DNA of 64,000 nucleotides from the NCBI GenBank assembly GCA_026874595.1, contig CM049319.1, positions 56,056,917-56,120,916 on the forward strand, given 5' to 3'. The notes under the pieces were generated by a model. It worked only from the letters and a program-made list of their open reading frames with translations, had not been told where the DNA came from and did not search any database. Positions 1,012-62,985 of the stretch are shown one piece after another. Every line of letters starts with the position of its first letter. The first letter of the stretch is position 1. This DNA is from Sipunculus nudus. Lineage: Eukaryota > Annelida > Sipuncula > Golfingiida > Sipunculidae. The translations under genes and the position numbers were made by a program.

Positions 1012-3434
1012 TTTTTAGCTCAGCTGACTTTCAGTCATGCAGGGCTATAGCGATGGGTCTTTGTCCGTCGTCCTTCGGTCTGTCTGTCCGGCCATTAGCA
1101 GGGCACAAATCGTAACCGTAGGGGCTAGGGCCATGAACCCTATGCAGTCTTAGAGGTTCTAAAAAGATCTCTTTGCAAACCTGAAATTAGGTCACTGCGA
1201 CCTATATTCTCGAAGTTATGGGGTGTGTTTGCACCCCCCAGAAATAATTCTTTTAGCCAAAATTTTCATCCCAAACCTTCCATCTTTCACATACAGCTCA
1301 CCTACCAACAGGGGAAGAACCACAATTATTTTGAGGTCACAAGGTCAAAGGTCAAGGTCACAGAACCAACTTCTTTGAAAAGCCTGTGGATGCATTTTAA
1401 GACAAACCTTTCATCCCAATTCTTTGATCTTTCACATATAGCTCACCTACTAAGTGGGAGAAGAATCCTATAGAAGTTGAGGTCACAAGGTCAAAGGTCA
1501 GGGTCACAGGATCCACTTCTTTGAAAAGGTTGTGGACACATTTCAAGCTAGACCTTTCATTCCAAACCTTTCAGCACTGATATCGCTTCTCTGCCAACAG
1601 GGGAAAAGACCTGTTGATTTTGAGGTCAAAGGTCAAGTTCACAGCACCCTCATCTTGCGTGGAGTCATTTTCAGGCAAACTTTTCAATCTATACTTTCCA
1701 TCTGTCATATATGGCTTACCTACCAATAGGGGAAGAAGCCTATTGAAGTTGAGTTCAAAAGGTCAAAGGTCAAGGTCACAATATTGTTCTAAATGCTTGT
1801 GAACATATTTCAAGTGAAACTGTTCAACCCAAACCTTCAGTCTTTCACATATGCCACATCTATGCATAACTCAATGTGATTCAAACTTCATATTTATGGG
1901 TCTTTTTGCATGAAGAAATAACTAATTGATTTTGAGGTCAGCTGGTCAGGAGGTTAAAGGTTGCAGGTCTAAGTAATTCACTCATTGGTTGCCAAGTAAT
2001 TACACCTGGCCAGATGTAATTGGTTAATAGTTACCCATCATTTAGAAAGAATCCAGTTGATATGTGGGCAAAAGGCCAAGGTCATAGGTCAGGTCAACTT
2101 ATTTTGTAGACCATCTCTGTTTTTCTTGTATATATAAGCTTGCACTCCAGCTGGTACATCTCCCCGTGTGGCTGTAATTGTGAGTGACACTGGTGACATA
2201 TGACTCCCTTTTGTATCAGGCTATTAAGTGATAAGGCTGAGTGATAAGTACCTCATTACTGCATAACAAAACACTGTTGTTGGAATACTTCAGCAAGGAA
2301 TTAACACTATGAGAGTATAGTATTAAGGTTTAGCTACTGATTTATAAGATGATGGGAACATTTTGCAGTTTATTTTATGGAATCATAGCAATAAACTTAG
2401 TTTTCTAGATATCTGAATATTTTTTTATAAATCACCACATATAAAAGCAAGTGTTTGTTCTCATAATATGTGGATGTGTACTTGATTTAGGATGGCTTTA
2501 TTTTATTACAAGACTCTTAGTCATGCTTTCTGCATTTCTTTTCTTTCAGGTTTTGCAGTTTACCAACCCTGCTGACCCCATTGAAAAGCAGAGTGATAAT
2601 AAAAAATATTGGACCTACACTTTTACATTTGCATATCTGTAAATCTGATATGATCGCCTGAACATGCCTTTTGAATTGTTTTGGACATTCATTACTGTAA
2701 CATCATTTGGAGAATTTGCCCCAAGTTTGGTCTCTTATTGGAGGATGTGTGATATCAAATGTCAGACTTGTCAGAAATCCATTATGTCTGCCAGTTAGCC
2801 ACCTTAGAAATTCTTTTTTTCAGTGCAGTTTCAGTAATTTTCCTTCAATTTTTGGTCCGATTTAGAAAATGGTTGTTGTCTGATTTCAGACTTGTCAGAA
2901 GTCCAAAATGGCCACCAGGCAACCATCTTTAAATTCCTTTTGATCATATTATCTCAAGAACTGTTAAAGTGAAGGCAGTCGGACGTATAATAATGTAATC
3001 TTGCAAAGGATTGGGTCATATATTTCTTAATAAATATTATCATCAAATATGAAAGTGCAGTACAGTTGGCTTGTATTGAATAAAAATTCATTCGGAAGCA
3101 CCTGTTTCTCAATAATTCTTGCATGGATTTCCTTGATTTTTTGCTATATATTTTGATCTTATATTTGCCCTTTGTGGTGTTCCTTTTGAGACTGACAGGT
3201 ATCAAGTAAGCTATGGGAATAGTTCTGGATACCTTAACAATCATACATTTTCCTAAGACCATCAATTCACTGTGTTTTAACCAGACATAGGTGATATATA
3301 TTTCTGTTGTCGTAGAAAGTTCAACAAATTGGCAAATTTGTTCTTCAAAATTTGACTGGAAGTTGTGAATCTCAGCCCATGATGTCGCAGGTCATGCTTG
3401 GCAGCTAAGCGTCATGACCCATGGGTCACTTGTT
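1012..3434 (+). mobile_element. HINE, AGCTCAGCTGA family, copy A
   Basis: The 5' end is TTTTTAGCTCAGCTGACT followed by an imperfect hairpin ending GGGCTATAG. The 3' end has a TCAGCTGAGC-like site (GCAGCTAAGC), the perfect palindrome GACCCATGGGTC at 3416-3427, and CTTGTT. The 5' part carries about four diverged monomers of roughly 140 bp with AGGTCAAAGGTCAAGGTCA. No coding capacity. Placement among Helentron-associated elements is by structure. Confidence 0.68.
1331..2110 (+). repeat. Tandem core of about 140-bp monomers rich in AGGTCA
   Basis: Diverged monomers near 1331, 1481, 1621 and 1757 each hold AGGTCAAAGGTCA or a close variant and a segment reading CTTTCATATAGCTCACCTACC-like. The same monomer forms the core of the element at 58982-60843, which has different ends. 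Confidence 0.75.
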
Positions 3435-3883
3435 TAAATATAATGAATAGGCTTTCAGGTCAGTAGAAGCCAACCAATATTTTGCAAGCTAAGTCGAGCA
3501 ATGAAACTTGGCTTTCTACTACAGTCAGCCATCTTATTGTCCAAGCCAGCTGCATTTGTGTGGCGAACACTGCTCCAGGTTGCAGCCTATATGGAGCTAA
3601 ACCAATAACCTGCACATGATGTAGACTCTGCCCACTTCTATATCTTACAATAAGATAGGCCCTCATTCTTTTGCAGTTATACCTTGCTTCAGCAGGTCAG
3701 TTGCCTGCCGTGTCATTGGTTTTGAAAAAAGCTCTACAGTAGTGTCATTGGGACGTAAACTGAAATCATCTGACCAGTCAAATCCTGTTTTACAACAAAA
3801 GCACCCCAAGAGTGCATAATAAAGCCTTTGTATATCTTGTGACCTGTAACCTCATTAAATATGCGCAAAATTCTTCCAAGACC

Positions 3884-4110
3884 GGAATTCAGGTGAGCAC
3901 TCTGCGGGCTTAATAGGAAGGCCGTGCCCATCGGCCATTATTCACAAACAAACGAATGCACCTTTTAGGGAGTTCATTTATCTTTTAGTGGTATGACTAG
4001 GCAATGGGGACTAGAACATACTCAGGGCCTGCAGGTGCAGTAGTCATTATAAAATGAGAGGAAGCGTGTGATACTGCCTTGTCATGTGGATTAAAAACCA
4101 AAATGGAATT
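3884..4110 (+). repeat. SINE copy, 5' truncated
   Basis: It begins in GTGAGCACTCTGCGGGC and continues through TAGGAAGGCCGTGCCC, CAGGGCCTGCAGGTGCAGTA and GAGGAAGCGTGTGATAC to ACCAAAATGGAA. The order matches the complete SINE at 53104-53430. Confidence 0.75.
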
Positions 4111-7100
4111 CTGCAGAATTATATTTAAGAGTTAAGCTAGCCTAAAAAAAGGAGGAGGCTATCTCCAACAAAAACAAATATTATAAAAATATATGCTCAG
4201 TAGCTAGCAAAAGTCATAATATCCATATGCACAGTTTGGTCATCATCTGCTACAATCCTTTATAGTTAATGGTTTAGTAAAGAGTCCAAGAACCTTTACT
4301 GACTGCACCTCTACTCTGTTAAACCCTTGCAGTGGTTTAACAAACAAGACGCCTTCAAACATACGATCTGATTTTATTATACATATAAAGCAATATGAAT
4401 ATAAATGTCTGAGTAACACATTTTATCTTTTTCTGGCCATGTACATATAATCTGTATATCAATGTATGATAAAGCTGATACAGGTCAATGTTAGAAGTAA
4501 ATACCCTCAATGACCTTATGGGCACCTATCAGCACCCATACGCATCTTATATATTTTATTCATTCTAAATAATGAAATGTTGATACATTCCTTTAAATGT
4601 TCCTTAATGAACAAATATGCCATCTCCATCTTCATAACATGCACTGTCCTAAACGTTTTGTATTTTCAGACTGTAAAGCACACTCATTATAAAGCAGGAC
4701 AAATGCAGGAAATCTGAAGGAAAAAGTTTGACAAAAGAAGGAAAACCATGAAAAATAGGACAAAAGTAGGAAAACTTAAGGAAAATGTATGACAAAAGTG
4801 GGAAAACTGAGGGAAATAGGACAAAAGTTGGAAACCAAGAGAAAATATGACAGAAGTAAGAAAACTGGGGAAAAAATTATGAAAACTGAAGGCGGAAAAA
4901 GCAGGACTGAAACCACTTTTGTAACAACATTATTCATGCCCATTCTTGATAAATTAATGTGAAAAAAATATATATATATTACTAAGAACATTAAAACAAA
5001 TTAACATGGCAGTTTTCAGATCATTTTGGGATACAAAAATCGCATATAATAGTTTACTTATAATAACAAAAGGGACAATTTAAGAGTAATTCACACTTTT
5101 TTTAGACTGTATGTTAAAGTGTAAAATGATTAAGTAGGAACTGTAAGAAAATTTAGAACTTTTATAGAAAAATAGTACTGAAACCAAAATTGTATGAAAA
5201 AGTAGGAAAAGTAGAATTGCTTGACAGTGGTAAGCCTGCATTTATTGTTGTACAGACAACCCAAAAAGGTTTGTGTGCAAAAACAAAAAAGGAAAATATT
5301 GATCAGAACAAAATACATACTTCAAGTTTCTATTGAAAATAAAAATTGTTGATGCGGAGGGTTAAAATAGATATGCGTGGTGCCTGAAAACTATACCTTT
5401 TATTTTTTTGGCCTTACATGTCTTAATTTTGTTTTTACTTTTTAAATTCAGCGTCATAAAAAGAACAAGACCTGAATAATGAAAGACATCACAATGGAAT
5501 CATTAATTGCTCTGACATAGTGAATTCACTTTGTCCCCAAGCCATGACATTAAAATCACCCCATAAATGGAGAGCTCAATAATATTTTCAAGTGACACCA
5601 TGAAAGACTTCATAGCATAAGTTCAAGACAATAAATCATAAATCAAATACTTTTTCATACTCTGCCAATTCACTATTGTACCACAAATTACTACATAATT
5701 TCCATTTGTGGAAAACCTGATGGAATGAAACCAGTAAGGCCAAAAAAAAAGAAAAAGAAACAGGTAGATAAGGGTAGAAGTGTGGAGTATGGCTATTAAA
5801 ATCTACATTTTTTTAATTTAAATCCAGCTGAGAATGACCATTTTACATAAAATATTATAAAAAGGTTCACAATACAATGGATAAATATATTATAAGAATG
5901 GTATAAAATCAATTGGTCACATTAATTTGTCCCACACCACTATGATATATATATTCTGATGGTCCAAATAATAATATCAATCCTTGGAATCTATCAATTC
6001 AGATTACTGCCCATAGGCTACATTTCTTTGAACCAGCCAGAGAATTATCATACCATGAGCAGTGAAATATATGTGATATAACTGGAAGACAATTGATGCA
6101 TTACAAAAGTAGAAAAAAAATCATCATTTAGGCAACACCAATAAATGAAATGGTCACAGAGACTTAGGCAAAAGCATGGAGGAAGCAGATGAACTGTTTC
6201 TCCTTTATTTTGCTTGAAAAGTTACTATTTGAGACAAAAGAAAATTTTGCCATCTTGCAGGAAGTCAATATTTGAGAGTTCTTGAAAATGTGCATATTAA
6301 AGGGGCCTCTTCTGATATCTGATGTCTATTAACTGAAGATATCCCGATGAACCTTATATATAACAGGCAAGAAAATGCCAATCCAACTGCACACAAGGCT
6401 GTTTGTTTGTTTAAATCCATGTGTTTGTAACGTGTGGGACCAGCAAAAATAATTCAAACAATAATCCAACAAAGATAGTCCATTAATATGCAAACAGAAT
6501 AAACAGAAAAGGCAAGTGTATATCTGGCTTTAAAAATACAAAAATTGTTCTATATTCAAATACTTCTTTATGAATAAAAATTTTGCGTTGCTAATGCACA
6601 TAATGATTTCTCTATGGGACTGAGGTAAGAACTTAAATTAAAAACATTATTACTGAGGACTTTGGGGGGAAGGGGGGCTCCAGAAAATAGGAGTGCGAAT
6701 TCAGTGAAACAATTACCCTTTTTTTTTGGTGTAGCCTTGCATATGTCTGAACACAACCTGGTAATGATTGTATACATGCTCCCTCTGTAAACACCAATGA
6801 TAAAAATGCGACGAGGTAGCACCAATATAATACAATATGCTATAAAAAGGTGGCAGTATAAAATGCAATCTAATATACAAGTAAATTTTAACAGATACAG
6901 TTTATCTAAAATTGTTCTTTGTGTTATGTTCCCATCATACATACAAAATTTATCATTCACTGTCACTTTTGTTATGAAGACTTTCACTCCTGTACACCTC
7001 AAATGCACAAACATACCTGTGGTGTAAGGTTATATAACAAACATATGTACAGTTTTGCACCATTTCATGTAAAGCCAAAAGTTTCGAGATTAATTTTCAT

Positions 7101-7905
7101 ACATTTGGCGATATTCAAGGATTGTATTCATAGGTAAAGCTTTCAGGGGATCTTTGCTTGGTCAAACGTGGATCTTTCACATATCACAGGGATAAACAGG
7201 CATGGCTACTTCATCCTGCTGTATCATTCCTGCTACTCTTCTAAAATAATTCATCACCATAACAAAGTACATGTGCGTATTTCATTCTCATTTAAATCAT
7301 CTTGAATGATCACAATGTCTCTTGTGATAACAGCTTAATTTAAGTGGATAATAAAATAAGTTGGACAAATATGGTTTAGTTTCTTAAAAAAATATCACAC
7401 ACAAAAGTGGACAGGTGATTATAATTATTCTGCACTAAATGTAAAGACCTGCAGTCTCAGTACAATGGATTACTCCAGGGCTTGACATTAACAGTTACCA
7501 GTTTGTCCAGGGCAAGTGAAAGTTCTAGAAATGGTGGTAGGGCAAACAAAGTCATGTCAAACTTAAACCTTAACCCATAGGCTTGAATCTTAATTTGAAT
7601 CCAGTTAGCAATTTTCTTTCTTGGAGAAATGGAATCACATTAATGATACCTCTTATCTTAAGTCACCTACATTTGTCTGTACAAATACGAACAAGAAATA
7701 ATATTAATTAACCAAAATTTGACAAGGTTTACAGTCTAACATGTAATGAAACATGCACCTTGAAGACTCTTTGTGTTCATGGCTACAACCATTGCATTTT
7801 GATGGGCAAATTAAAGGCAACATAAAAGCTAGATATCACTTGCCTGAGTAGGCAAACACTTTCAAATGTTAAGGTCAAGACCTGATGACCATTTCACTAT
7901 CACAT
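4111..7905. other. AT-rich region without a recognised gene; 3' flank of the TBC gene
   Basis: It holds no domain-bearing frame. Stretches 4690-4900 and 5140-5230 contain a dispersed purine-rich repeat of AGGAAAA and AGTAGGAAAA motifs. Several TTTATT strings (AATAAA on the minus strand) could serve as poly(A) signals for the TBC transcript, but none can be chosen. Confidence 0.45.
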
Positions 7906-8256
7906 TTAACAAGAGTACCACATTGGTGTATAATACGCCTGTCATATGTCTTGTGACCTCTGACCTCATAGTTTCTTTAAAATCCATCAAATTCCTGGTA
8001 AGTTACTGCAGCGACACCTCAAAGTAGCCTGGTCGCCTTTGATCTGATTATATATATGTGTGGATTTTTTCTATAATCAAATTTGGGTGAGATAATCTAC
8101 TGGTTAGTAGTTCTGATGAATTTCATAAATACCTATCTGACAGAACACCAGTAGTAAATTATCATGGGAACACTAAAAGTCAACGTACGGATGGACCATA
8201 GGTATACCATTTTATGTTCTGTTATAGATGAGTGTATAATAAAATTAAAAACATAA
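7906..8256 (-). mobile_element. HINE, TAATACGCCCA family (F), copy 1
   Basis: Read on the minus strand it starts near TTTTATTATACAC and ends with an AGGTCAGAGGTCA site, then GTACTCTTG. The inner part is shortened compared with 17318-17850. It lies in the predicted 3' UTR of the TBC gene. Confidence 0.62.
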
Positions 8257-8326
8257 CCAGGTCCCCCCCTGTAGTGTGAATTGATGAGTGATCTTATTTG
8301 TGGCTGTCTCAGCCGTTGTGTGATGT

Positions 8327-11400: not shown

Positions 11401-14400
11401 GGTCAAACATAAACCAGCTTTAGTGAACACTGCAGCAAGTGCATTCTACACAGAGCCATATCTAAAAAGTGCTCAGTGTTAATTACTTTAAAAAAAAACC
11501 TAACAAAATGGATTAAATTTCCAAAGCTTTGCTAAAATAAAGCTGTAGTACTACGCCATCTAAGATCAGGCTGTCAAGCACATGATTGAAAAAAAGGACT
11601 GGAAATGCTGAAAAGGTAGTAGTAGGAAAGTAGAAGGAAAAAGGTCACTCAAACCACACAGAACAACGTCATAAATTTAATCTTATTCTTGGGGAACAAA
11701 TGTAAAATTGAATGTTTTCACATTAGTTCTTCAAGAATAAGCATGAATTTATAATGCTGAATAAGCAATATGCTCAAGAATTTATAATGTCAATTTATAT
11801 TTATAATAAATTTACTGATAACACATTTAAACAAAATTTTATTTGCCACATGGTTTGTAATTGCACTTTTTGAAATCACATGATGCTCAAAATTGCAAAA
11901 AAATATTTTATTTATAATAATACAAGGACTGATTCACAGTAATTCTCAGGACACTGCATGTTACAGTTCAAAACAAAAAAAGGAGGAAAAAATACGAATT
12001 TTCAAGAAAAAGAAGGAAAAATAGGACTGAGGTAAAAACGTAGGAAAATTAAGATCACTTGACAGCCTGTATTACTAACATTGCTACTGACTAAATCTGC
12101 CTCTGACACATGAGTGTAAACACTATCTTTTTAGTAATTCCCATAACATTTACACGGAAATACGGAAAAGTAAGAAAGTGGGAGTGATACCACAAGTAAC
12201 GATGCTCATTTATGCTCATTTCAGAATAGGCAAAGTCCAGCTGCTAAAAAATGAATGTATTAAAGATACAAGGTCTTGAGAGAGAGGCCCTTTACCACCT
12301 GCACAATGAGAAATGCAACTGAATCAATCAAATGATTCACTTTTATACAGCCAAAAAAAAAAAAAAAAGTATGATTCTCAGGCACCGCCCACATCAAATT
12401 TAATCCCCTGAATCAACAATTTTTATTTTGACTTTCCATTGAAACTTACCAATCTAAAGCTCCAGCCACTCGATAAATTTCTTCAAGATTATAAAGTAAT
12501 ATAATTTTTATAAAATTTTTATCAAGACATAACAAGTGACCCATGGGTCATGACGCTCAGCTGACTGGGAAGAGATTTGCAAAAGGAAATTTTATCATCT
12601 GTATGGTAGTATATAACCATTGAACTGAAGCATCAAATAGATTAACCAACAGGCTGAGATTGTGTCTGTATTAATATATCTAAAAAATAAGAGAAAAAAT
12701 GCGTAAACTTGAAAAAAAAATCCAGGTGGCTCCACCAGTCTGCAGAAACCAATAAAAACACTTAATGGTCAATATCCATGCAAAGAAGCATGGTGGTCTC
12801 TGGATTAGTTGTTCAGATACTTCAGCTTTTGTATCAAATTTTCCATTATTCTGAGGGAAACTTGAAGTCCTATAGCTTGAAGGGTATGGGTAACAGAGAC
12901 CTAATTTCAGGTTTCCACAGACATTTTTCATGGGCCTCCTTACATGACAAGAATGAAGATTCTATGTCCAGTTGTTACAATTTGTACCCTGTTGACAGAT
13001 AACTACATCCTTAAAGGTCTCAAAAATAAAGAAAACAATTGTAAAAATTTAAAAAATACAGGTGGTGCCACCAGTCTGCAGAAACTGATGAAACATCTCA
13101 TGATCAATATGTATGCCAAAAATCATGACCATCAGTGATGTAGTTAATCAGATATTGAAGTTTTTTTTATAAAATTTTTGACTATTCTGGGGGGTACTTT
13201 TGGGCCCCATAGCTCGAAGGATATGGGTAACAGAGACCTAATTTCTGGTTTCCATGGAGACTTTTCATAGGCCTCTCAGAATTTCAAGAATGAAGATTCT
13301 AGGTCCAGTCTTTACGATTTGTGCCCTGTTCACAGATGTCCACATTTTTAAAGGTCTCAAAAATAGAGAAAAAAATTCGTAAAAAATAAAAAAAAATACA
13401 GGTGGCGCACCCAGGCTGCAGAAACTGATGAAACACTCTATGATCAATATCCATGCAAATGATTATGGTGATCTCTGCATTAGTTGTTCAGATACTTCAG
13501 CTTTTGTATCAAATTTTCCATTATTCTGAGCTGTACTTTGGAGTTCCACAGCTCAAAGGATATGGGTAACAGAGACCTAATTTTAGGTTTCCATGGAGAC
13601 TTTTCATAGGTCTCTCAGAATGTAAAGAATGAAGATTCTAGGTCCAGTTGTTACAATTTGTACCCTGTTGACAGATAACTACATCCTTAAAGGTCTCAAA
13701 AATAAAGAAAACAATTGTAAAAATTTAAAAAATACAGGTGGTGCCACCAGTCTGCAGAAACTGATGAAACATCTCATGATCAATATGTATGCCAAAAATC
13801 ATGACCATCAGTGATGTAGTTAATCAGATATTGAAGTTTTTTTTATAAAATTTTTGACTATTCTGGGGGGTACTTTTGGGCCCCATAGCTCGAAGGATAT
13901 GGGTACGAAGAGACCTAATTTCTGGTTTCCAGCAGTTACGATTTGTGCCATGTTAACAGACAGACGGCTGGACGGCCATCCGGCCGTCCGGACGACGGAC
14001 AAAAGAGTGATCGCTATAGCTCAGATGACTTACAGTCAGCTGAGCTAAAAAACCTATTCCGTTTATGGTGCACACATGTTCTTGTTCAGATGCATGTGAA
14101 CAGTGTGTTATTTTTTATTTGATTTTGTCAGATTTTATTGGCAGTTGTGATTTGAGCCCAAACACTTGCAGGCTTAATAATTGTTCAATAAATTGACGCC
14201 AGAGTGGCTCCCTGAATCAAGGTCTGTGAAAGTGTAGCTGCCACAGAATTGGAAGTATGAAGATGAATTTTGTGCTAGTTTTTATGGTATTAAGATCATG
14301 TGGGTATCAAACTGTTTTATATATATTAACACATGCAAACTTTCACAGCCTTTACAGCATTTTGAAATTGTAAGCAAAAATAAAAAAGTATGAATAAAAA

Positions 14401-17400: not shown

Positions 17401-20400
17401 AAGGTAATTCAGGTAAGAAACTCTACTGGTAAATAAGTATAATGAATTTCATGAAAATCCATAGGATTTTTGGTTAGTCACCACGGTGCCTCACAAGTGT
17501 GGTGACCTCTGCCCTCATTAAATAGATTTGGCTGGAAATTGAACTTAGGAGAAATATTTTATCATAATTTCTGATTAATTTTATTAAAATCCTTCATATG
17601 CTTCATAAGTTATCATGGCAACAGCACAAAGTAGCCTAATGACCCATGACTTTATTAAACATGCGTGGATTTTGCCAATAATCAAACTTGGGCAAGATAA
17701 TATGGTGGTAAGTAGTTATGGCGAGTTTTGTGAAAATCCCTCAAAGCCCTGGAAAGTTATCGCAGCAACACTATAAGTTAACGGACAGACAGACTGTCGG
17801 TATACCATAATACTCCTGTCATAAGATGGGCGTATAATAAAAATGACAACATTATGTGTGAATAATTGTATCCGCCAAAACAGAGTTTTGCGGATACTAT
17901 GTTTTCAGCTGGCCGCCGCCGCCGCCGCCGCCGCCGCGTAGGTGTCCGGAGAACTCCTCTGTAACCGCTGGGCGGAATTTTCCGAAACCCGGGATTATGT
18001 TCGGGTCACATGTGAACTGCTGCGCCCCGATTTTGTTTTGACCTCTGACCTTTCCTTTGCGCTCTGCGTCCGTTTGTGCGTCTGTTTCCACACATAAACC
18101 CACATATCTCGGGAACCGTTTGACCGATCAGGAAAATTTTTTTGCACAAATGTAGCCCTCGGAGAGCTTTATAACATACACCAAAAATGGTGGCGCCACC
18201 TGCAACCATGTTTGCACAGTGTCCATCTGTTCGTCTGCCTTGGGTTAAAATCACTCATATCTCTGCAGTGACTTGACTAATTCACCTGAAATTGGGCATG
18301 CATAAACATCCTGGATAGCTTTTCTGATTTTATGACAGGTGGCGCCACCTACATTCACGTTTACCCTGCAGACATCCAAGCTCATATCTCGGGAACCGTT
18401 TGACCGATCAGGAAAATTCTTTTGCACAAATGTAGCCCTTGGAAAGCTTTATAACATACACCAAAAATGGTGGCGCCACCTGCAACCATGTTTGCACAGT
18501 GTCCATCTGTTCGTCTGCCTTGGGTTAAAATCACTCATATCTCTGCAGTGACTTGACTAATTCACCTGAAATTGGGCATGCGTATACATCCTGGATAGCT
18601 TTTCTGATTTTATGACAGGTGGCGCCACCTACATTCACGTTTACGCTGCAGACATCAAAGCTCATATCTCGGGAACCGTTTGACCGATCAGGAAAATTCT
18701 TTTGCACAAATGTAGCCCTAGGAGAGCTTTATAACATACACCAAAAATGGTGGCGCTACCTGCAACCATGTTTGCACAGTGTCCATCTGTTTGTCTGCCT
18801 TCGGTTAAAATCACTCATATCTCTGCAGTGACTTGACTAATTCACCTGAAATTTGGCATGCGTATACATCCTGGATAGCTTTTCTGATTTTATGACAGGT
18901 GGCGCCACCTACATTCACGTTTACGCTGCAGACATCCAAGCTCATATCTCAGGAACCGTTTGACCGATCAGGAAAATTGTTTTGCACAAATGTAGCCCTT
19001 GGAGAGCTTTATAACATACACCGAAAATGGTGGCACCACCTGCAACCATGTTTGCACAGTGTTCATCTGTTCGTCTGCCTTGGGTTAAAATCACTCATAT
19101 CTCTGCAGTGGTTTGACTAATTCACCTGAAATTCGGCATGCTTATACATCCTGGATAGCTTTTCTGATTTTATGACAGGTGGCGCCACCTACATTCACGT
19201 TTACGCTGCAGACATCCAAGCTCATATCTAGGGAACCGTTTGACCGATTGGGCCAAAATTTTGCATGTGTATAAATCTCACATAGCTCTTTATCATACGC
19301 AAAACTGGTGGCGCCACCTGCAGCCATGTTTGCACAGCTCCCATCTGTTTGTCTGCCATGGGATAAAATCACTCATATCTCGGCAGTGGTTTGACATATC
19401 TGCCTAAAATTTTGCAAGTTTATACATCCCCGACAGCTCTCTTGATTTTATGACAGGTGGCGCCACCTGCATTCTATTTTTGCAGCAGATATCCAAGCTC
19501 ATATCTTGGGAACCGTTTGACTGATTGGGCCAAAGTTTTGCATGTGTATAGAGCTTTCTGGATTTTTTGGTAGGTAGCGCAACCTACATACACAATTTGG
19601 CTGCAGACATCCATGCTAATATGCAACACTTCACCCGTTCCACTCTGATTTAGGCGGATACAAGTAGTCGCTTGTCGACTACCCGTATTCTAGTTCATAC
19701 TTGATATAAGGACCAATTTTTTATTCGCCTAAATGTTTATCATCCATTGGTGATTATAATATTATTTTTTTCTACAAAATATGAAATTCACAGATATTTC
19801 ATGCAGTGTACTGATACCTGAAGGTCCTATAAAAAGGTATTCTTAAATTGTAAGGTTTTCATTGGAACTCCATAATGCAGAAACACTTCCTAAATTTGGG
19901 CAAAATTCAAATGTATATCATGGATACATCTCCAGTAAAAGTAAAAACTTTACATAATCACAAGGATATTATAGAGCATACATGATGAATACATTTTTAC
20001 TTCTCTAGTGGTATTTACACTCCCTGTACACAAGTTGGTCAAACTTTAATGATTGCTAAGAGCTGAAAATAAAAATTCCTCTTAAATCATATTTAAAGTA
20101 AAATAATTACCATGCAACCTACTTTTACCAAGAAATGAATATATGAGGGCAAAATAAGGTGAAATGCAAACCCAACTTATAGAACAAAACCAGCTGCATC
20201 AACAAAGGACTTAATTAAGGGTCCTAGAAATGTCTCAGGAGTGTGTATAAATATCTTCCAGTATATCTCTTAAGACACAGAAGACCTGTGGGCATTTTTT
20301 GATTAATTAAATGACTTGTAATAGTATTTCAGATATGGGTGTTCAGTTTTTATATATTTTTATTTTGATCATGGTTCAAATGCTTCAACAAACTTTTTTT

Positions 20401-48164: not shown

Positions 48165-49580
48165 CTCTTATTAAATAGTAGGTCATATTAGTTTATTACA
48201 CTTCCACTTTGATCCCCATTTCATCGACCTATTATAACATTTAGGCTATTTTAGGTACTACATTAGAATGCGGGCTTCTGCCCAACAACCATAGGAAACT
48301 GCTGCTTGCATATTAATTTTGCTACTTATTTTTATCTGCCACTTACATGCTCCTCTATTACATAAATCCTAAACATCATAACGTCCATCCATATAGACTC
48401 ATAACCTCATCTAGACAGTGTGTGAGTGATCCTACATTCGCTCTGAAGCCCCCGTTCTGTAGTGGCTCTCTATTTTATCAAAGCCCTGACTCCAATAGCA
48501 CCTGAAGTGCTACCATGGCATGGTTTGCACCCTTGGCATGGTTTGCTCCCTAGGGCAGGATCTAAATCATGCCACAGACCATTAATTATACTAGAGGACA
48601 GGGTATATATAGGCAAGTTGGATTCCCTGTACTGTTTGCATAGCAATTTAGGCAAAAGAGCAATCTTGAACTGTGAATCATCCCCCCCCCCCCAAAAAAA
48701 AGATTTTTAAATCTTTTTAATTAAATTCAAAGGCCTACTTGAAAATTAAAAACTGCTTTTGGTTGGGAACACTGATCCCTTTTTAATAGTGGCACCAAAA
48801 CTGGATTTGCAAACCTCAGTTGAAATTATTCATTAGGTAATAATTTTAAATCCCTTTATTAGGATCATATAAACTTGATCATTAAACTGAAATACAGAAT
48901 ATGAAATATAACAAATTTATCTTTTAATTTTTTTTTTCTTTTGATCAAAATAACATTTCAGAAGTATATTTCAGATATAATCTGCCCTGTGGAGACCACA
49001 TATTTCACTAAAAAAAACATTTAAAATCACCTTCCAATAGCAAGTTAAATGATTATATTTTTTTACAACTGGTTTCTTGTGTAATTTAGAAGTATTGCAC
49101 TATTTAATATAAGATAAAAATAATTGTTAATTTGAAATATAAAAAAAAATTTTAAATGAATTTGTTTCTCAAGTCATATTACATATGATCATTTCACTCC
49201 CATGCACATATAACAGACAATCTCCATATAACCTGTTGATCACATGATATGCCTATCAACCAGGTATTGTCCACTTCATTGATTTGCTGGTGGTTTTGTG
49301 TTATGTCCTTTTATGACTGATGTTTATGTGATGTAATGGTATTGCCAATTATTTATACTTACTTAAATCTGTTGATTAAGGAAAGCATGTGTCTGAGGGA
49401 TTATTTTATCATTACAGACTTAAAATATTTTATATTCCCTTCTGTATCAACTACATTATTAAATTTTGTATACACTTTATCATCAGCCCCCTGAATGATA
49501 TAATATTATATATTCCTATATATTTTATTAAAATTAAATATTATATATGCTAAATAATTATCCATTATTATTTACATAAT
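48165..49580. other. Intergenic AT-rich sequence
   Basis: It holds CATGGCATGGTTTGCACC near 48513, repeated in inverse near 51905-51985, but no gene. Confidence 0.5.
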
Positions 49581-51603
49581 TGTATCCGCCAAAACAGAGT
49601 TTTGCAGATACTATGTTTTCAGCTGCACGCCGCTGCTGCCGCCGCGTAGGTGTCCAGAGAACTCCTCCGTAACCGCTGGGCGGAATTTTACGAAACCCGG
49701 GATTATGTTTGGGTCAAATGTGAACTGCTGCACCCCGATTTTGTTTTGACCTCTGACCTTTCCTCTGCGCTCTGCGTCCGTTTGTGCGTCTGTTTCCACA
49801 CATAAACCCACATATCTCGGGAACCGTTTGACATACAGGAAATTTTTTTTACACAAATGTAGCCCTTGGAGAGCTTTATAACATACACAAAAAATGGTGG
49901 GGCCACCTGCAACCATGTTTGCACAGTGACCATCTGTTCATCTGCCTTGGGTTAAAATCACTCATATCTCTGCAGTGACTAGACTAATTCACCTGAAATT
50001 CGGCATGTGTAAACATCCTGGATAGCTTTTCTGATTTTATGACAGGTGGCGCCACCTACATTCATGTTTACGCTGCAGACATCCAAGCTCATATCTCGGG
50101 AACCGTTTGACCGATCAGGAAAATTTTTTTGCCCAAATCTAGCCCTTGGAGAGCTTTATAACATACACAAAAAATGGTGGCGCCACCTGCAACCATGTTT
50201 GCACAGTGTCCATCTGTTCGTCTGCCTTGGGTTAAAATCACTCATATCTCTGCAGTGATTTGACTAATTCACCTGAAATTATGCATGCATACACATCCTG
50301 GATAGCTTTTCTGATTTTATGACAGGTGGCGCCACCTACATTCACGTTTACGCTGCAGACATCCAAGCTCATATCTCGGGAACCGTTTGACCGATCAGGA
50401 AAATTTTTTTGCACAAATGTAGCACTTGGAGATCTTTATTAACATACACAAAAAATGGTGGCACCACCTGCAACCATGTTTGCACAGTGTCCATCTGTTC
50501 TTCTGCCTTGGGTTAAAATCACTCATATCTCTGCAGTGACTTGACTAATTCACCTGAAATTCGGCATGCGTACACATCCTGGATAGCTTTTCTGATTTCA
50601 TGACAGGTGGCGCCACCTACATTCACTTTTACGCTGCAGACATCCAAGCTCATATCTCGGGAACCGTTTGACCGATCAGGAAAATTTTTTTGCACAAATG
50701 TAGCCCTTGGAGAGCTTTATAACATACACAAAAAATGGTGGCGCCACCTGCAACCATGTTTGCACAGTGTCCATCTGTTTGTCTGCCTTGGGTTAAAATC
50801 ACTCATATCTCTGCAGTGACTAAACTAATTCACCTGAAATTCGGCATGCCTAAACATCCTGGATAGCTTGTCTGATTTTATGACAGGAGGGGCCACCTAC
50901 ATTCACGTTTACACTGCAGACATCCAAGCTCATATCTTGGGAACCGTTTGACCGATTGGGCCAAAATTTTGCCTGTGTATAGATCTCACATAGCTCTTCA
51001 TCATACGCAAAACTGGTGGCGCCACCTGCAGCCATTTTTGCACAGCTCCTGTCTGTTTGTCTGCCATTGGATAAAATCACTCATATCTCGGCAGTGGTTT
51101 GACATATCTGCCTAAAATTTTGCAGGTTTATACATCCCCGACAGCTCTCTTGATTTTATGACAGGTGGCGCCACCTGCATTCTAGTTTATGCAGTAGACA
51201 TCCAAGCTCATATCTTGGGAACCGTTTGACCGATTGGGCCAAAGTTTTGCATGTGTATAGTTCTCACATAGCTCTTTATCATACGCAAAACTGGTGGCGT
51301 CACCTGCAACCATTTTTGCTCAGCGTCCATCTGTTTGTCTTCCACGGGCTAAAATCACTCATACATGTAGTGGTTTAACTTATCTGCCTTAAATTTTTCA
51401 TATGTATACAACTTGGACGGCTTTCTGGATTTTGTGGTATGGGGGGGGGGGGGGGCAACCTACATACACAATTTGGCTGCAGACATCCATGCTAATATGC
51501 AACACTCAATTTTCCCTTGCCACTCAATCCATGCCTCACTTCACCCGTTCCACTCTGATTTAGGCGGATACACCTAGTCGCTTGTCGACTACCCGTATTC
51601 TAG
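49581..51603 (+). mobile_element. HINE, TGTATCCGCC family, copy 2
   Basis: Same architecture as 17867-19693: TGTATCCGCC start, fold-back GCAGATA, GCC-rich run, dimeric 280-bp array, subterminal GGCGGATACA, hairpin TAGTCG-CTTGT-CGACTA and CTAG followed by TT. A poly(G) run disrupts the array near 51440. High similarity to copy 1 suggests recent activity of the family. Confidence 0.87.
49800..51400 (+). repeat. 280-bp dimeric tandem repeat
   Basis: Landmarks GACAGGTGGCGCCACCT recur at about 50041, 50321, 50602 and 51160, with intermediate monomers carrying TGGTGGCGCCACCTGC. Monomer types alternate as in the copy at 18085-19600. Confidence 0.93.
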
Positions 51604-53100: not shown

Positions 53101-53103
53101 CTT

Positions 53104-57000: not shown

Positions 57001-60000
57001 TTCTCTCTCTTTCTCTCTCTCTCTCTCTCCCTAATTGCCTCCCTTGCTCCCTCCATCCCATTCTGTTGACAGGTACTATAAACTAGATACATTAGCTATA
57101 AATGTTGATGCAATTTAGAAATGTGAATCAACTGAAATATTCACAATCACATGTATGTTATACTGTAAATTTATAGTAACATTCGGAAACTTGGATTAAA
57201 ATTATGTAATGAAAAAAAGGAATAAATGCAAATATTGTTAATTTTTTTTTGGCTCAGTAGAATTGGGAAAAAAATTATTTGCTTTGTTTCTCCATCTTTC
57301 TTTCTGTTTTAAATATTTAATGTTTATGAATAAACTTTTTTTTTATAAGCAATGTGGAATTAAATTTCATATCCTGTATGTATATGCAAGGGTGTTGTAA
57401 CTCTCACCATCCCCTTCTTCATCCCACTGAGGCTTTGCTCCTTGGCACTGTGAACAATAGTTCTATGGCTATAGCATAAAATTTAATAATTAAAGAAAAT
57501 ATCTACAGAGAGACAGAGGCTTTGTAACTCTGATCATAACACAACACCCCTCCCCCCCCCCCCCCCCCATCAAGTCATTGCACCTGTGGAATGAGGACGT
57601 TATGGCAACTGTATACATATCATAAAATTGATAAAAAAGGTTTACCAAATAAATTGGATCTCATCAGACAAATGTGTAAACTGTTTAACTGTCAACAGCT
57701 TATCAAAAAGGTAACCAATGGAAAGGCATGGTCAGGTCTCAAATATTATTTGCAACATTTTCTTCAATCAGTACTGTTGACCATTTGTCCATAGGTACCT
57801 ATGTACATGCCAGAAATTATGTCAATATTATGTAATATGTAGACGTGAGGGGCATCAAAATAATGCACCTTGTCAAGACCGATCTTGTCAAGATATTATG
57901 TCATACAGTCACAAATTCATAAATCCCCTCATTAGTATAGTTAATCATAACCTTTTATCTGTCAAATTGAACTCTTGCAGTTTTCCATACACTATAGATC
58001 CTTCAACAAATAGCCTTATCATCATTATACCACTGCTTAGCATACTGTCATTGCATTCATATTTGCTCAAATAAATTGCTTTTTTCAACCCCTCCCAAAT
58101 AAATAAAAAATAAACCACTATATTTTACTCCATATTAATCCATCAGTCAGGTTATTTCATATATCATTTACTCACATATTACATTATATTCCTTTATAAA
58201 ACCCAACATGACCATGATATTCTAAGCTTTATCTACTCAATATAGTATCACAATGGTGATACATTTATAGTCCAATCAGGATCAGCTGAGCGCCGTGACC
58301 CATGGGTCCCTTGTTAGCTTAGCTGACTATAAGTCAACTGAGCTATAGCCATAGTCCTTTGTCTGTCAGCTGTGCGTCCGTCTGTCCGTAAAACACTGCT
58401 TTATACATTAACCATTTACCATTTACTTCTGTGGGCTTTGCTGACATAATTTAAGTCATGTTGAAGTCTGGTCAGGTGCTTTACTGCCTGCAGTATGTAG
58501 GTCCAATTCTCCCCTGAGAAGTCCATATTACTGTGGGTCTCATGCCACTTACCACAGTTTGCATACTGCGGGCCCGGTAAACACTTAATGATAAAATAAC
58601 TAGAGCAGAAAAAAATTTTTTTTTTTCGCTTACCGCATATCGCGCCCAGTAAACGCAGCTTTATAGTGATATCAAGGGCCTGTGAAATGGGGTATAGAAT
58701 ATTCAATGTTTCCTCATAAGCCTGATAAGGCTATTTTTATATTAAATGTAATTATACAGGAATTCTTCATAATAGAAGTACTTTTATAAATAAAATGCTC
58801 ATTATACCATTTTGCAATTAATTTATTTGAATATGTCTTGAAAAAAAAATGAGATTTACAATGTTTCCATTCAAACTCCTGTAAATTTACAACAAAGTGT
58901 ACAGCTAAGTGTTTTGTTTGTGTTATTTGGTGGTTAAGGATTTGATTACTGTTATTATTTTTATTATGATTAAACTATTGTTGTATCCCCAGACAAAGTT
59001 GGGGGATACTATGTTTTCATACCGGTCCCGCCGCCGCTGCCGCCGCCGCCGCCGCCGCATATAAATCTTGTTGGCGCGATAACCCAAAAAATATTTCACG
59101 GAACTTTATCAAACTTGGTATATGTATAGATATGGGTAAGAGGACGACGCCTATTTAAAATGAGGTCATGACCTTTAAAAGGAGAGTGACCCTGACCTTG
59201 AATAGGTCCAATTTTAGGGAAAATCACACAAATTCTTTAATATCTCAAGAAATCTTGCATGGATTTATCCCAAAATCAAGTTGATGGAAGATCATGGATA
59301 GGGTTGTCATGTTCCAGAAAATGGTGGCGCCACCTATTATTCTTTACTTGTTTTCATGCCGTTTAATACCCCCAAAATTGCCACCTTACAGTACTGTGAG
59401 CATTATAAGTCAAAAACTAATGGACAGATTTCTTTTATATTATGCATATACATAGGTATGGGTTATTGGATGATGTTTATTTAAATTGGGGTCATGACCT
59501 TTCCTATGATAGTGGCCTTGACCTTGAATATTGCCATATATGGTGAAAATCACACACCTCTTACGATATCTCCAGTGTTGATAGCCATATGGATTTCAAA
59601 CATGACTTATGTATGGCCCACCACTAAAGTAAGAACCCTATAGGTTCTAGGGTCCTGAGGTCAAAGGTCAAGGTCACTGGACTGGCATTTTAAAAGATAC
59701 TATGGATGCATTTTAAGCCAAACTTTCATCCCAGGTCTTCCATCTTGAATATATAGCTCACTTGCCAATAGTGGATGATCCATATAAATTTTTGGGTCAC
59801 AAGGTCAAAGGTCAAGGCCACAGGAGCTATCTGTCCAAAAATTAGTTTCTGGATGATAATTCCTGCTTTTATTGATGTATTGATTTCAAATTTGACCTAT
59901 ATATGTCCCATTGAAAAAGCAAAACTCCAATTGATTTTGGGGTCATGAGGTCAAAGGTCAAGGTCACAGGACACATCTTTAAAAAGATTGTGGATGCATT

Positions 60001-62985
60001 CTCAGCCAAACATTTCATCTCAGACCTTTCATCTTGCACATATAAGTCATCTGCCAATAGAGGAAGACCCCTATCAATTTTGAGGTCACAAGGTCAAAGG
60101 TGAAGGTCACAGGAGCCATCTGTCCAAAAATTAGTTTCTGGATGATAATTCCTGCTTTTATTGATGTATGGATTTCAAACTTGACTTGTATTTGACCCAT
60201 TGGAAAAGCAAGACCCGAATTGATTTTGGGGTCATGAGGTCAAAGGTCAAGGTCACAGGACACATCTTTATAAAGATTGTGAATGCATTTTCAGCCAAAC
60301 AATTCATCTCAGATCTTTCATCTTGCACATATAGTTCACCTGCCAAGAGTGAAAAACCCCTGTCAATTTTGAGGTCACAAGGTCACAGGTGAAGGTCACA
60401 GGAGCCATCTGTCCAAAAATTAGTTTCTGGATGATAATTCCTGCTTTTATTGATGTATGGTTTTCAAACTTGACTTGTATATGTCCCATTGGAAAAGCAA
60501 GACCAAAATTAATTTTGGGGTCATGAGGTCAAAGGTCAAGATCACAGGACACATCTTTAAAAAGATGTGGATGCATTTCAGCCAAACATTTCATCTCAGA
60601 TCTACCATCTTGCACATATAGTTCTCCTGCCAAGAGAGGAAGAAAACTATCAATATAAGGTCACAAGGTCAAAGGTGAAGGTCAACATCTTCAACAAGAT
60701 TGTGGATTGTTAGATGGAAGAAACAATAAATATGCCAAGTGTCAGTATATGCTGCTAAAAATGGGGGTCTGTTCTTAAAGGGGGGGGGGGGGCCTACTAT
60801 GTCTGGGGATTCTCTGGCACCTGCGGTGCCAAGAAATGTCTAGTTGTTATTATTATTATTATTATTATTATCTCTATTCTCGTATTAATAAAAGATAATA
60901 ATACTTGTACTTTTCAGGTCAATGAATACAATGTACCTTTTGGGAAGAAGAATCGTGGCTTGACGGTCGTTCACTCATACAAGTTCATCAAAGGTGATGA
61001 GGCTACGGAGGAAGATCTCCATCTCGCTCGCATCATCGGCTGGTGCATTGAATGGGTAGGTCAAGGTTTCCAGACTTCATACCTCTGATTGATGAGCCAG
61101 GGAATATACTATGTTGTTATCACATAAAGCTATACTTCATCTTTTCAACTGTTTTTGGGGGCTCTAAGAGTGGTCAAACTTGTCTGTATCATGAATTATA
61201 AATAAGCCAGTTGAGGGGTCACAAATGCTCCTTGTGATACGTAGAATATTTTGTTATTAATCACATTTCACCATTATTAAAATGACTCCTATATTATTGA
61301 GAGTCTGACAGAATAACAGGAGATGGTGGTGTATAAACCTGTTACATGTTATGTCTGGTACATATTGTATATATGCTATCAGTCTTATTTGTAGTGGGTT
61401 GTCATAATTGGGGCTGTAAGGGTACATTATTTCACAACACTATGCAAATCATTATACTTTCCCTGCCATGTGTGATATTATAATATAAATTTTATTATGA
61501 TTTAAATTCCAAATCAGAGTTCCTTTTTTGTTCAAAGAAGATTTACAACTTTGTGGTCACACCCAGAAAACCAAGCCAAACCCCTGCTTAAGAAACACTT
61601 TGTGAAAATAAACTAACACCCTGTATAAAGAGTATAATTTTCCCCTACTTCCTTGGAAGGAACTGGGGACATTGATTTGGGTTTGTCTGTCTATCCCTCT
61701 TGTCTGTCCGTCTGTCAGGTTTCCATGTGATAACTTCCCTAATGCTTACCATGGTTGGGATTGGTTTTGGAGTGTCTGTCTCACAAGATAATAATACAGT
61801 ATGATATTTAATTTTTTGATATGATGAATCAGCACATTTAGTTCACTAATCACCAACAGATGTTGCTAGCAGTGGACATAATATACTTGATATTTTTGTG
61901 GTAACTGTCAGGTGCTTCCATTTTTGAGCATGGTTTAAACTATCTGTTCTTGGTCACCACAGACTTGAAAATCATCCCGGACTTGGAGGCGGAAGCAGGG
62001 AACATCAACTCCTTGAATTTGCTTGTTTACTAATGGATTCAGGTCTAAAAAATTAAGCATCTGTGGCTGTAGATTCAGATGCAGACCTTAAAATAAATAT
62101 AGTCCTATACTCCTTACACATGGCAACTGTTCCTTAACCATATGACTATTGCAGATTGCAGAAACTAGTTTGGAGCTTTCACACATTAAAAAAACCAAAA
62201 CAGTTTTGGCCACCACCCCAAAGACAAGATATGAAGCAATAATAAGGAAAAAACAGGTTTGTTTAACATTTCATTGCTTAATGAAATCTCCATCCACATT
62301 GAAACAGTCTACATTTAAATTTGGATTAAACTGATTTGAATGAGTCAAATACGCCATATGGGGTTTAAGTTGAGGACAACACTATCAAAATGATATAATA
62401 AGCTGTTATTTGTTACATTAATTTCAACTTTTTTTTCAGCTTCAAGCCTTCTTCTTGGTATCAGATGACATCATGGATGGCTCAATAACCAGGAGAGGTC
62501 AGCCATGTTGGTATAAAAAGGTCAGCTGCATAAATTTGCATAAATTACTATTAAGGTCAGCAGCATATATTTGCATATATTACTAAAAAGTTCAGCAGCA
62601 TATATTTGCATAAATCCCATAAAAAAAACATATTTACATTTAAACTATATCATTACATTATGTTTACAATGCAAGGTATCTATTATGTTGACAATTACAT
62701 CCTTATATTTTCATTCCACTTGATGTTGAAATTTATATAAATATATTTCTAATTATTCTAAAAAGCAGAAAATTACTTTTATTGTGACTGTGTTAGATGT
62801 TTTATTCATTTAAAATCACTTTATATATATTATATCAGTATATCTCTTATATGTTTTTGCAGGACAACGTTGGTTTGATAGCGATCAATGATTCGTTCTA
62901 CCTCGAGAGTGCTATATACCAGGTCCTGAAAAAATACATCCGTGACAAACCATACTACCTGAATATCATAGAGCTGTTTCATGAT
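53914..62985 (+). CDS. FDPS: Farnesyl diphosphate synthase, coding exons 1-4 (gene continues past the window)
   Basis: Exons 53914-54060, 60918-61055, 62440-62520 and 62863-62985 join in phase 0 with GT-AG introns to give the N-terminal 163 residues of a family usually about 350 long. The enzyme condenses isopentenyl diphosphate with dimethylallyl and geranyl diphosphate to give farnesyl diphosphate in the isoprenoid pathway. Visible signatures are [10 protein letters not shown] (isopentenyl diphosphate binding), [13 protein letters not shown] with the first DDxxD motif, ITRRG, and [10 protein letters not shown]. The two Phe residues before DDIMD are the chain-length residues expected for a C15 product. 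The second aspartate motif and C-terminus lie outside. The N-terminus [10 protein letters not shown] shows no clear transit peptide. The first intron (6.9 kb) holds two HINEs, and an upstream non-coding exon is likely. Confidence 0.95.
54391..58314 (+). mobile_element. HINE, AGCTCAGCTGA family, copy E (3.9 kb)
   Basis: The 5' end is TTTTTAGCTCAGCTGACTAT with hairpin partner AGTCATCTGAGCTATAG. The 3' end is TCAGCTGAGC, palindrome GACCCATGGGTC (58297-58308), CCTTGTT. The interior repeats a segment of about 680 bp (for example GCATACAGTTAGATGTCCCC at about 54525 and 55207), plus later insertions. It lies in FDPS intron 1. Confidence 0.75.
56896..57033. repeat. Pyrimidine-rich CT/CTTT microsatellite
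   Basis: A long run of TCTC and TTTC units. The Ser/Leu-rich frame across it is simple-sequence translation. Confidence 0.95.
58315..58395 (+). mobile_element. 5' end of a second AGCTCAGCTGA HINE, directly abutting copy E
   Basis: AGCTTAGCTGACTATAAGTC and its fold-back partner start at the base after CCTTGTT of copy E, followed by GTCTGTC-type sequence. It is then truncated. Confidence 0.72.
58982..60843 (+). mobile_element. HINE, TGTATCCCCAGACA family
   Basis: The 5' end TGTATCCCCAGACAAAG folds on GGGGGATACT. ATCCCCAGACA pairs with TGTCTGGGGAT at 60800-60810. The 3' hairpin GGCACC-TGC-GGTGCC (60816-60830) is followed by CTAG at 60840-60843 and TT. A GCC-rich run stands near the 5' end. The core is a ~288-bp dimeric array rich in AGGTCA sites. 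It lies in FDPS intron 1. Confidence 0.87.
59640..60700 (+). repeat. ~288-bp dimeric tandem repeat rich in AGGTCA
   Basis: CCAAAAATTAGTTTCTGGAT recurs at about 59834, 60124 and 60413. Within each period AGGTCAAAGGTCAAGGTCA or a close variant occurs twice, about 143 bp apart. Confidence 0.92.
60843..60872. repeat. (TTA)n microsatellite
   Basis: A TTATTATTA run beginning at the 3' insertion boundary of the HINE. Confidence 0.9.
60918..61055 (+). CDS. FDPS: FDPS coding exon 2
   Basis: Acceptor TACTTTTCAG, 46 codons, donor GTAGGT. It encodes [20 protein letters not shown] and ends GWCIEW, matching the allylic/isopentenyl binding part of FDPS. Confidence 0.95.
61635..62032 (+). mobile_element. 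HINE-like element, GGGGACATTGATTT family (N), copy 1
   Basis: The 5' region folds (CCCC...TTCCTTGGAA...GGGGACATTGATT) and is followed by GTCTGTC-type sequence. The far end reads GGGAACATCAACTCC, then GAATTTGCTTGTT. It matches 63441-63872 end to end in layout. Confidence 0.6.
62440..62520 (+). CDS. FDPS: FDPS coding exon 3 (first aspartate-rich motif)
   Basis: 27 codons, [20 protein letters not shown] and more, with acceptor TTTTTTCAG and donor GTCAGC. The magnesium-binding DDIMD motif is intact. The donor and following bases are repeated downstream. Confidence 0.97.
62521..62625 (+). repeat. ~37-bp tandem repeat starting at the FDPS exon 3 donor
   Basis: AAGGTCAGC(T/A)GCATA with TTTGCATA and an ATTACTA spacer occurs three times. 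The first copy is the exon-intron junction itself. Confidence 0.82.
62863..62985 (+). CDS. FDPS: FDPS coding exon 4
   Basis: 41 codons, [20 protein letters not shown] to [10 protein letters not shown], with acceptor TTTTTGCAG and donor GTAAGT. The last 29 coding bases plus the donor are duplicated 39 bp downstream, with the donor there changed to GCATGT. Confidence 0.95.

What the first reader, a model, noticed from the sequence alone, without database searches (positions are those of the whole stretch)
1331..60700. The same ~140-bp satellite core sits inside two HINE families with unrelated ends
Monomers at 1331-1800 (ends AGCTCAGCTGA / GACCCATGGGTC) and at 59640-60700 (ends ATCCCCAGACA / CTAG) share AGGTCAAAGGTCAAGGTCA, the GTGGATGCATTTTNAGNCAAA segment and the CACATATAGCTCACCTNCCAA segment in the same order. 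The termini share nothing obvious. This points to modular exchange of satellite cores between transposon families, a possible route by which satellites spread.
Basis: seen in the sequence. Interest (0 to 1): 0.8.

Follow-up and report, generated by a model that had tools for sequence, protein, structure and literature searches.

The report
One satellite shared by unrelated transposons
The same short tandem repeat sits inside two kinds of rolling-circle jumping element whose ends are unrelated, and one of the two is a patchwork in which this repeat appears to have replaced an older one, which suggests how such repeats move between elements and spread.

Summary
Confirmed and extended. A (window 1012-3432, "alpha" ends AGCTCAGCTGA/GACCCATGGGTC) and B (58981-60843, "beta" ends ATCCCCAGACA/TGTCTGGGGAT, hairpin, CTAG) share a ~145-bp unit C beyond the AGGTCA box: outside it, strict identity averages 66.6% (shuffles 46%, maximum 53%). 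Their termini match no better than shuffles. B alternates C with a unit X (289-bp dimer); a larger alpha family, D, carries the same X-C dimers. Beta elements also exist with arrays of a ~326-bp unit M instead (4 of 8 sampled beta 5' ends). B is a mosaic: M-type sequence to about 59561-59573, then D-type X; the junction string has 2,864 genome matches. The stretches between M and the array are unrelated in D and B, so X-C joined the two backbones separately. Best reading: X-C replaced the M array of a beta HINE, from a D-like donor or a shared third source, once and long ago. HINEs with exchangeable satellite arrays are known from oysters, and a 2025 review reports the same arrays in different oyster Helitrons; the junction and its parental form are what is added.

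The parts
1012..3432 (+). Element A: alpha-ended HINE-like element (5' TTTTTAGCTCAGCTGA, 3' CAGCTAAGCG..GACCCATGGGTCACTTG)
   Evidence: 11 other copies fetched; 5 of 11 align in one piece over about 1012-3436 at 94.6-96.8%, a sixth from 1042, the others in pieces or shorter; 5' end in 11 of 12 loci, 3' end in 9 of 12, window copy included; coordinates
1264..1880 (+). A's tandem C units (period about 146 bp)
1880..1935 (+). Degenerate X-like piece after A's C units
   Evidence: blastn 68-70% to B X units; alignment
58981..60843 (+). Element B: beta-ended HINE-like element (5' TTGTATCCCCAGACA, 3' TGTCTGGGGAT, hairpin, CTAG then TT)
   Evidence: of 17 loci looked at, 14 show the 5' end and 14 the 3' end; TT follows the 3' end in 13 of those 14; hairpin z -4.4, 0 of 200 shuffles; coordinates
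59120..59446 (+). M unit 1 of B (limits approximate), with palindrome GGTGGCGCCACC at 59323-59334
   Evidence: B 142-268 and 468-594 also hit each other's places in B copies; tandem M in L071, L073, L074, L075
59447..59563 (+). Truncated second M unit of B, resembling the later-unit variant of beta-M arrays
59561..59573 (+). Mosaic junction: beta-M to the left, D-type X to the right (ATATCTC in M, ATAACTCCAG in D)
   Evidence: match sums over 220 bp: M then D 183.2, all M 158.2, all D 140.7, D then M 158.8 (6 M units, 3 D edges); junction string 2,864 genome hits at up to 3 mismatches, 0 reversed controls
59574..60699 (+). B's X-C dimer array (289-bp period)
60700..60711 (+). Right junction (approximate), after which B and beta-M are alike again (TAGATGGAAGAAAC at 60711)
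   Evidence: L071 tail against window B tail, score 90, no shuffle control run; one beta-M copy only
12533..14048 (-). Alpha-ended element carrying a 337-bp tandem array of M-type units; no box found in the 1.6 kb scanned
   Evidence: M_D against this repeat score 115, 0 of 200 shuffles
17866..19693 (+). Gamma element: left end related to beta, 280-bp array containing GGTGGCGCCACC
   Evidence: left-end profiles beta to gamma 5 of 5 (best E 8.4e-10), gamma to beta 21 of 21, but 2 of 21 reversed controls also pass (best 0.00086)
49580..51603 (+). Second gamma element

Best explanation
A and B are non-autonomous Helentron-type (HINE) elements of two families that, to judge by their unrelated ends, would need different transposases (inferred). 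SHOWN: both carry homologous C units; the alpha family D and the beta family B carry homologous X-C dimer arrays; beta elements with an M array and no box in the 1.1 kb held exist; B changes from beta-M to D-type X within about 12 bp, and is alike with one beta-M copy again near the right end. INFERRED: during rolling-circle copying or repair of a beta-M element, the copying strand switched at a short, partly shared stretch (ATATCTC / ATAACTCCAG) to an X-C array, most likely one inside an alpha D-like element, and re-joined before the beta right end, replacing the M array. The chimera kept intact beta ends, so the beta machinery could spread it, while its X-C units were homogenised. Thus a satellite array changed carrier.
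For: Core homology beyond the box. No terminal similarity between alpha and beta, strong similarity between A and D. Of 11 arrays at the first core-motif places on C1 (0.14-0.92 Mb, a stretch dense in these elements), 7 match B, of which 4 show a beta end in the stretch held, and 4 match D, of which 2 show the alpha 3' end, one with a base changed. Of 8 sampled beta 5' ends, 4 lead into tandem M, 2 into X-C, 1 is cut by an alpha insertion, 1 is diverged with one weak M palindrome and no box in 1.1 kb. Mosaic junction, junction string 2,864 matches. D and B spacers between M and the array unrelated (one copy of each; score 21, 93 of 200 shuffles reach it), so the two joinings are separate. B's left-edge X scores 48 and 44 with two D left edges, mean 36.8 (max 45) with 8 internal D X units, mean 26.5 (max 33) with 88 internal B X units: the edge kept a D-like state.
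Against: The donor is not identified: D's X-C may itself come from another element (a microsatellite-like run precedes its array), and no alpha copy with exactly the donor state was seen. The right junction rests on one beta-M copy (L071). M and X are partly alike near the switch, so the break is placed only to about 12 bp. The core tree is unrooted and its family branches are not strongly supported; direction rests on the mosaic and the edge X unit. B's left-edge C unit sits beside A+D in the tree (89/90) but is nearer to other B units by a raw identity measure that I judged flawed (84.3% against 79.4% to D). Only 8 beta ends were sampled.
Confidence: 0.7

Rival explanations
1. Independent capture from a third source: a free-standing satellite or another HINE family supplied X-C to both the alpha and the beta backbones. 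(It differs from the best explanation only in the donor, so the two odds overlap.)
For: D and B join X-C at different points with unrelated spacers; D's array is preceded by a microsatellite-like run typical of a left flank.
Against: No long free-standing X-C array in the stretches held of 11 C1 arrays, and B's edge X resembles D's. The genome was not surveyed for such arrays.
Confidence: 0.35
2. Common descent: alpha and beta derive from one ancestor that already carried M and X-C, and their ends diverged beyond recognition.
For: Where M was found in the 250-400 bp stretch searched, it lies at similar distances: alpha 300-356 bp (10 copies), beta 282-357 (21), gamma 298-323 (5); with the palindrome masked the alpha profile finds 19 of 21 beta and 5 of 5 gamma copies. 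Good for M.
Against: The opposite profile searches are weaker: beta finds 3 of 10 alpha and 0 of 5 gamma, gamma finds 0 of 10 and 0 of 21, and many alpha ends, A copies included, show no M. For X-C: the M-to-array junctions are not homologous, B has the array inside a truncated second M unit, and X-C identity between alpha and beta (73.5%, 69.8%) is no lower than between two alpha families (68.1%).
Confidence: 0.15
3. Nested insertion: an alpha element jumped into a beta element and the composite was amplified.
For: An alpha insertion into a beta element was seen (L072).
Against: No alpha end lies between B's own ends in the window copy; the array starts within an X unit.
Confidence: 0.05
4. 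Chance or convergence on the AGGTCA box.
For: The box is the most conserved part (90.9% against 66.6% between families), though units were cut out by fuzzy matching to the box, which inflates this.
Against: Similarity outside the box, in the same order over several units.
Confidence: 0.01

Closest known systems
Cg_HINE elements of the oyster Crassostrea gigas (PMC7492417; abstract, Results part 1 of 2, sections 8 and 9, Discussion part 1 of 2 seen)
   Same: Non-autonomous Helentrons with 5' subTIR, inverted repeat, microsatellite, central satellite-like array (140-180 bp), 3' subTIR and palindrome, TT insertion; a group with related flanks and unrelated repeats.
   Different: In that sample each repeat cluster went with one specific flank pair ('but not vice-versa'). 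Here related repeats sit between unrelated flanks, with a mapped junction.
'Same type of arrays ... across different Helitron elements' in C. gigas (review PMC12628747, passages seen; its reference 47 not seen)
   Same: States the phenomenon that the finding reports.
   Different: No junction or parental form is given in the passages seen; whether the elements are related to these was not tested.
Pearl / CvA / DTC84 modular elements of bivalves (only as described in passages of PMC5139131 and in PMC7492417)
   Same: Modular elements with up to six ~160-bp internal repeats, some related to satellites; cut-and-replace of monomer segments proposed.
   Different: Sequence relation to our C, X or M units was not tested; no such sequences were at hand.
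DINE-1 and mite HINEs (PMC4067079, passages seen)
   Same: Architecture, and the classification rules used here.
   Different: Other hosts (flies, mites); sequences not compared.

Membership tests
HINE (non-autonomous Helentron) | Subterminal inverted repeats | tested here: met
   B: ATCCCCAGACA / TGTCTGGGGAT, 11 bp exact. Alpha is weaker: 5' GCTCAGCTG against 3' CAGCTGAGC, 9 bp, in 8 of 9 A loci with a 3' end; the window copy has one change.
HINE (non-autonomous Helentron) | Palindrome or stem-loop near the 3' end | tested here: met
   B hairpin z -4.4, 0 of 200 shuffles. Alpha palindrome GACCCATGGGTC, 4 in window against 0.03 expected at up to 1 mismatch, but the alpha 3' end folds no better than shuffles (z -0.14, 86 of 200).
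HINE (non-autonomous Helentron) | Insertion at TT / T-rich sites | tested here: met
   TT follows B's 3' end in 13 of 14 copies; at least four T precede the alpha 5' end in 11 of 11 A and 3 of 4 D copies.
HINE (non-autonomous Helentron) | No target-site duplication | not tested
   No empty-site search was run.
HINE (non-autonomous Helentron) | No coding capacity | tested here: met
   No ORF of 80 aa or more in B; two in A, 82 and 103 aa, the first running into the repeats; neither was searched against protein families.
HINE (non-autonomous Helentron) | Autonomous Rep/Helicase/endonuclease partner sharing the ends | not tested
   No protein search of the genome was made.
One Helentron family for A and B (at least 11 bp identical subTIRs, rule from PMC4067079) | Shared subTIR | tested here: not met
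   AGCTCAGCTGA against ATCCCCAGACA; ends no better than shuffles. A and B are different families by this rule.
Classical satellite DNA | Long free-standing arrays | tested here: inconclusive
   0 of 11 C1 arrays were long free-standing arrays in the stretches held; the genome was not surveyed.

The most novel reading that the evidence does not exclude
HINE families with incompatible ends share one pool of satellite arrays and trade them directly by strand switching at short homologies between satellite units, and the AGGTCA box (a DR1-plus-extended-half-site arrangement of the kind nuclear receptors bind, recalled) is kept because it helps the carrier, for example as a promoter in the germ line.
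Probability: 0.12. Interest if true: 0.75.

Novelty: new member of a known kind. Interest (0 to 1): 0.5.

Why it matters
How short satellites become scattered over euchromatin is an open question. Here a likely parental form, a likely donor type and the chimera coexist in one genome, with the switch point placed to about 12 bp and 2,864 matches to the junction string, so satellite replacement in a rolling-circle element can be studied at sequence level rather than inferred from similarity alone.

Tried and rejected
Rejected: box-only similarity; nested alpha insertion for the window copy. An identity measure that ignored gaps was dropped because shuffles averaged 75% with it; one search replaced it. 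The homology of M between D and B rests first on alignments that include the palindrome (84 against shuffle maximum 56; 61 against 43); with the palindrome masked one pair was marginal (33, reached by 1 of 200 shuffles), and only the profile tests with the palindrome masked support it, unevenly by direction. Homology of M between beta and gamma is not shown by profile (0 of 5 and 0 of 21), though one pair scored 51 against 40.

A general strand bias of insertions was considered: strong among 100 listed alpha ends on C1 0.1-6.4 Mb, but not beyond 6.5 Mb on C1 among listed junction sites (83 sites, adjacent same 47 of 82, 3,355 of 10,000 shuffles as high; pairs under 20 kb were 6 of 6 same, 143 of 5,000 shuffles) nor among 216 sparse sites on all chromosomes.

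Papers: (box string plus 'satellite') gave one unrelated paper; (five strings from these elements) none; (Helitron and nuclear-receptor terms) none. One search asked for a paper that is not held. PMC11136912 and PMC8268682 were seen in passages only.

Full report
THE OBSERVATION. Element A spans 1012-3432: of 11 other fetched copies, 5 align over about 1012-3436 in one piece at 94.6-96.8% and a sixth from 1042; the rest align in pieces or are shorter. Element B spans 58981-60843; of 17 loci looked at, 14 show the beta 5' end and 14 the 3' end, with TT after the 3' end in 13 of 14. A carries four C units (period ~146 bp), preceded by a partial one, and a degenerate X-like piece; B alternates C with X in a 289-bp dimer.

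HOMOLOGY. Blastn finds 79-80% in pieces of 110-193 bp and 64-70% in pieces of 466-632 bp. On strict identity (gaps counted), sampled A-B unit pairs average 69.8%, and 66.6% with the first 32 bases removed; shuffles average 46% and reach 53%; the weakest pairs (48.7%) overlap the shuffles. The termini share nothing above shuffles (left 21, 74 of 200 shuffles reach it; right 19, 94 of 200), and left-end profiles of alpha and beta find nothing in each other (0 of 21 and 0 of 10).

OTHER CARRIERS. The core motif has 19,965 matches (up to 1 mismatch), the alpha 5' end 49,324 and the beta 5' end 2,575 (up to 2 mismatches), each with 0 reversed controls. At the first core-motif places on C1 (0.14-0.92 Mb, a stretch dense in these elements and perhaps not typical) lie 11 arrays: 7 match B, 4 of them with a beta end in the stretch held; 4 match a third family, D, 2 of them with the alpha 3' end (C4 exact, C2 with one base changed), while C5 and C9 show none. 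D copies L064-L067 have the alpha left end (4 of 4) and alpha right end (3 of 4 in the stretch held) and an X-C array; the M palindrome is found in 3 of 4 at up to 2 changes. D had 6,514 first-look candidates, A 384 (lower bounds). So X-C dimers occur between alpha ends (D) and between beta ends (B).

THE OTHER BETA FORM. Of 8 beta 5' ends (the first listed zero-mismatch hit on each of C1-C8), 2 lead into M then X-C, 4 into tandem M units of about 326 bp with no box in 1.1 kb, 1 is interrupted by an alpha element inserted at a T run, and 1 is diverged, with one weak M palindrome and no box. In B the first M unit is complete and the second stops inside. Against six beta-M units and three D edges, B matches M at 0.80-0.93 per 20-base block up to 59560 (D 0.37-0.70) and D at 0.82-0.87 in the four blocks 59561-59640 (M 0.49-0.69), then D 0.62 and M 0.42 in the last block; the best break is 59563, near-ties 59561-59573. 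An M-then-D mosaic scores 183.2 against 158.2 (M only), 140.7 (D only) and 158.8 (D then M). Near the right end, from TAGATGGAAGAAAC (60711), B is alike with beta-M again, seen in one beta-M copy. The junction string has 2,864 matches (up to 3 mismatches), as expected of one founding event that was then amplified; whether each match lies in a beta-ended element was not checked.

WHY NOT COMMON DESCENT. The stretch between M and the array is unrelated in D and B (one copy of each; score 21; 93 of 200 shuffles reach it), so X-C seems to have been attached to the two backbones separately. X-C identity across the alpha-beta divide (D-B 73.5%, A-B 69.8%) is no lower than between two alpha families (A-D 68.1%), although A and D left ends are plainly related (161 against a shuffle maximum of 32). 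For M, common descent is reasonable: where it was found in the 250-400 bp stretch searched, it lies at similar distances in alpha (300-356), beta (282-357) and gamma (298-323), and with the palindrome masked the alpha profile finds 19 of 21 beta and 5 of 5 gamma copies, with 0 reversed controls. The opposite searches are weaker (beta finds 3 of 10 alpha and 0 of 5 gamma; gamma finds 0 of 10 and 0 of 21), and many alpha ends, A copies included, show no M.

TIMING AND DIRECTION. In a tree of 70 core units (of 141, subsampled by locus) A and B each fall on one side of a branch (support 86/34 and 91/89) and D needs two changes; in a tree of 49 X units (of 96) B and D separate at 100/99. Continuing exchange is not seen in these samples. 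The left-edge C unit of B lies beside A+D (89/90), though a cruder identity measure put it nearer to other B units. B's left-edge X scores 48 and 44 with two D left edges and mean 36.8 (max 45) with 8 internal D X units, against mean 26.5 (max 33) with 88 internal B X units. I read this as a D-like donor whose edge unit was not homogenised with the rest, but a third source would also fit.

MECHANISM. Shown: the mosaic and the two sequence types that it joins. Inferred: strand switching at a short, partly shared stretch during rolling-circle copying or repair, then homogenisation. The parts seen of PMC7492417, PMC5139131 and PMC12628747 discuss filler DNA, cut-and-replace and rolling-circle models for bivalve elements.

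WHAT IS KNOWN. PMC7492417 found each repeat cluster tied to one flank pair in its sample, with related flanks carrying unrelated repeats in one group. PMC12628747 (passages) says that the same type of arrays is found across different Helitron elements in C. gigas, citing a paper I have not seen. The phenomenon is therefore known; these families and this junction I did not find in print (searches, in an open-licence library only).

Noticed in passing
G000:C1 about 0.1-6.4 Mb: 100 listed alpha 5' ends run on one strand over hundreds of kb (adjacent same 87 of 99, 0 of 10,000 shuffles), and core arrays follow the strand of the nearest alpha end in 25 of 28 cases, 2 more having none in range. Not seen beyond 6.5 Mb on C1 or among sparse sites on all chromosomes; the window's own elements are mixed. 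Unexplained.
   Followed up: partly
G000:C1:1405532-1421655: Core hits recur in groups spaced about 2.6-2.9 kb, and four B junction strings lie there 2.6-2.8 kb apart on the same strand: B-like elements seem to lie head to tail. The sequence was not fetched.
   Followed up: no
window, 17 sites incl. 18039, 49747, 7954, 17361, 33995, 36712: AGGTCANAGGTCA (DR1-like) occurs 17 times against 0.03 expected, also in the left parts of both gamma elements and outside the C arrays; AGGTCA 113 against 31.
   Followed up: no
window 12533-14048, 17866-19693, 49580-51603, 59323: The palindrome GGTGGCGCCACC recurs about 280-360 bp from the 5' end in copies of three terminus types (which searched only 250-400 bp; open scan).
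   Followed up: partly
window about 60919-61056: Likely exon of a polyprenyl synthetase just downstream of B (Pfam PF00348, E 2e-05, 24.3 bits, below its cut-off of 27).
   Followed up: no
L041; L043-L048 (arrays C4 and C6): A further element's 3' end (..TTTGGGGTGACA-GCTGTCGCTAG, one base differing) abuts a D copy and a B array: probably another CTAG-ended family.
   Followed up: no
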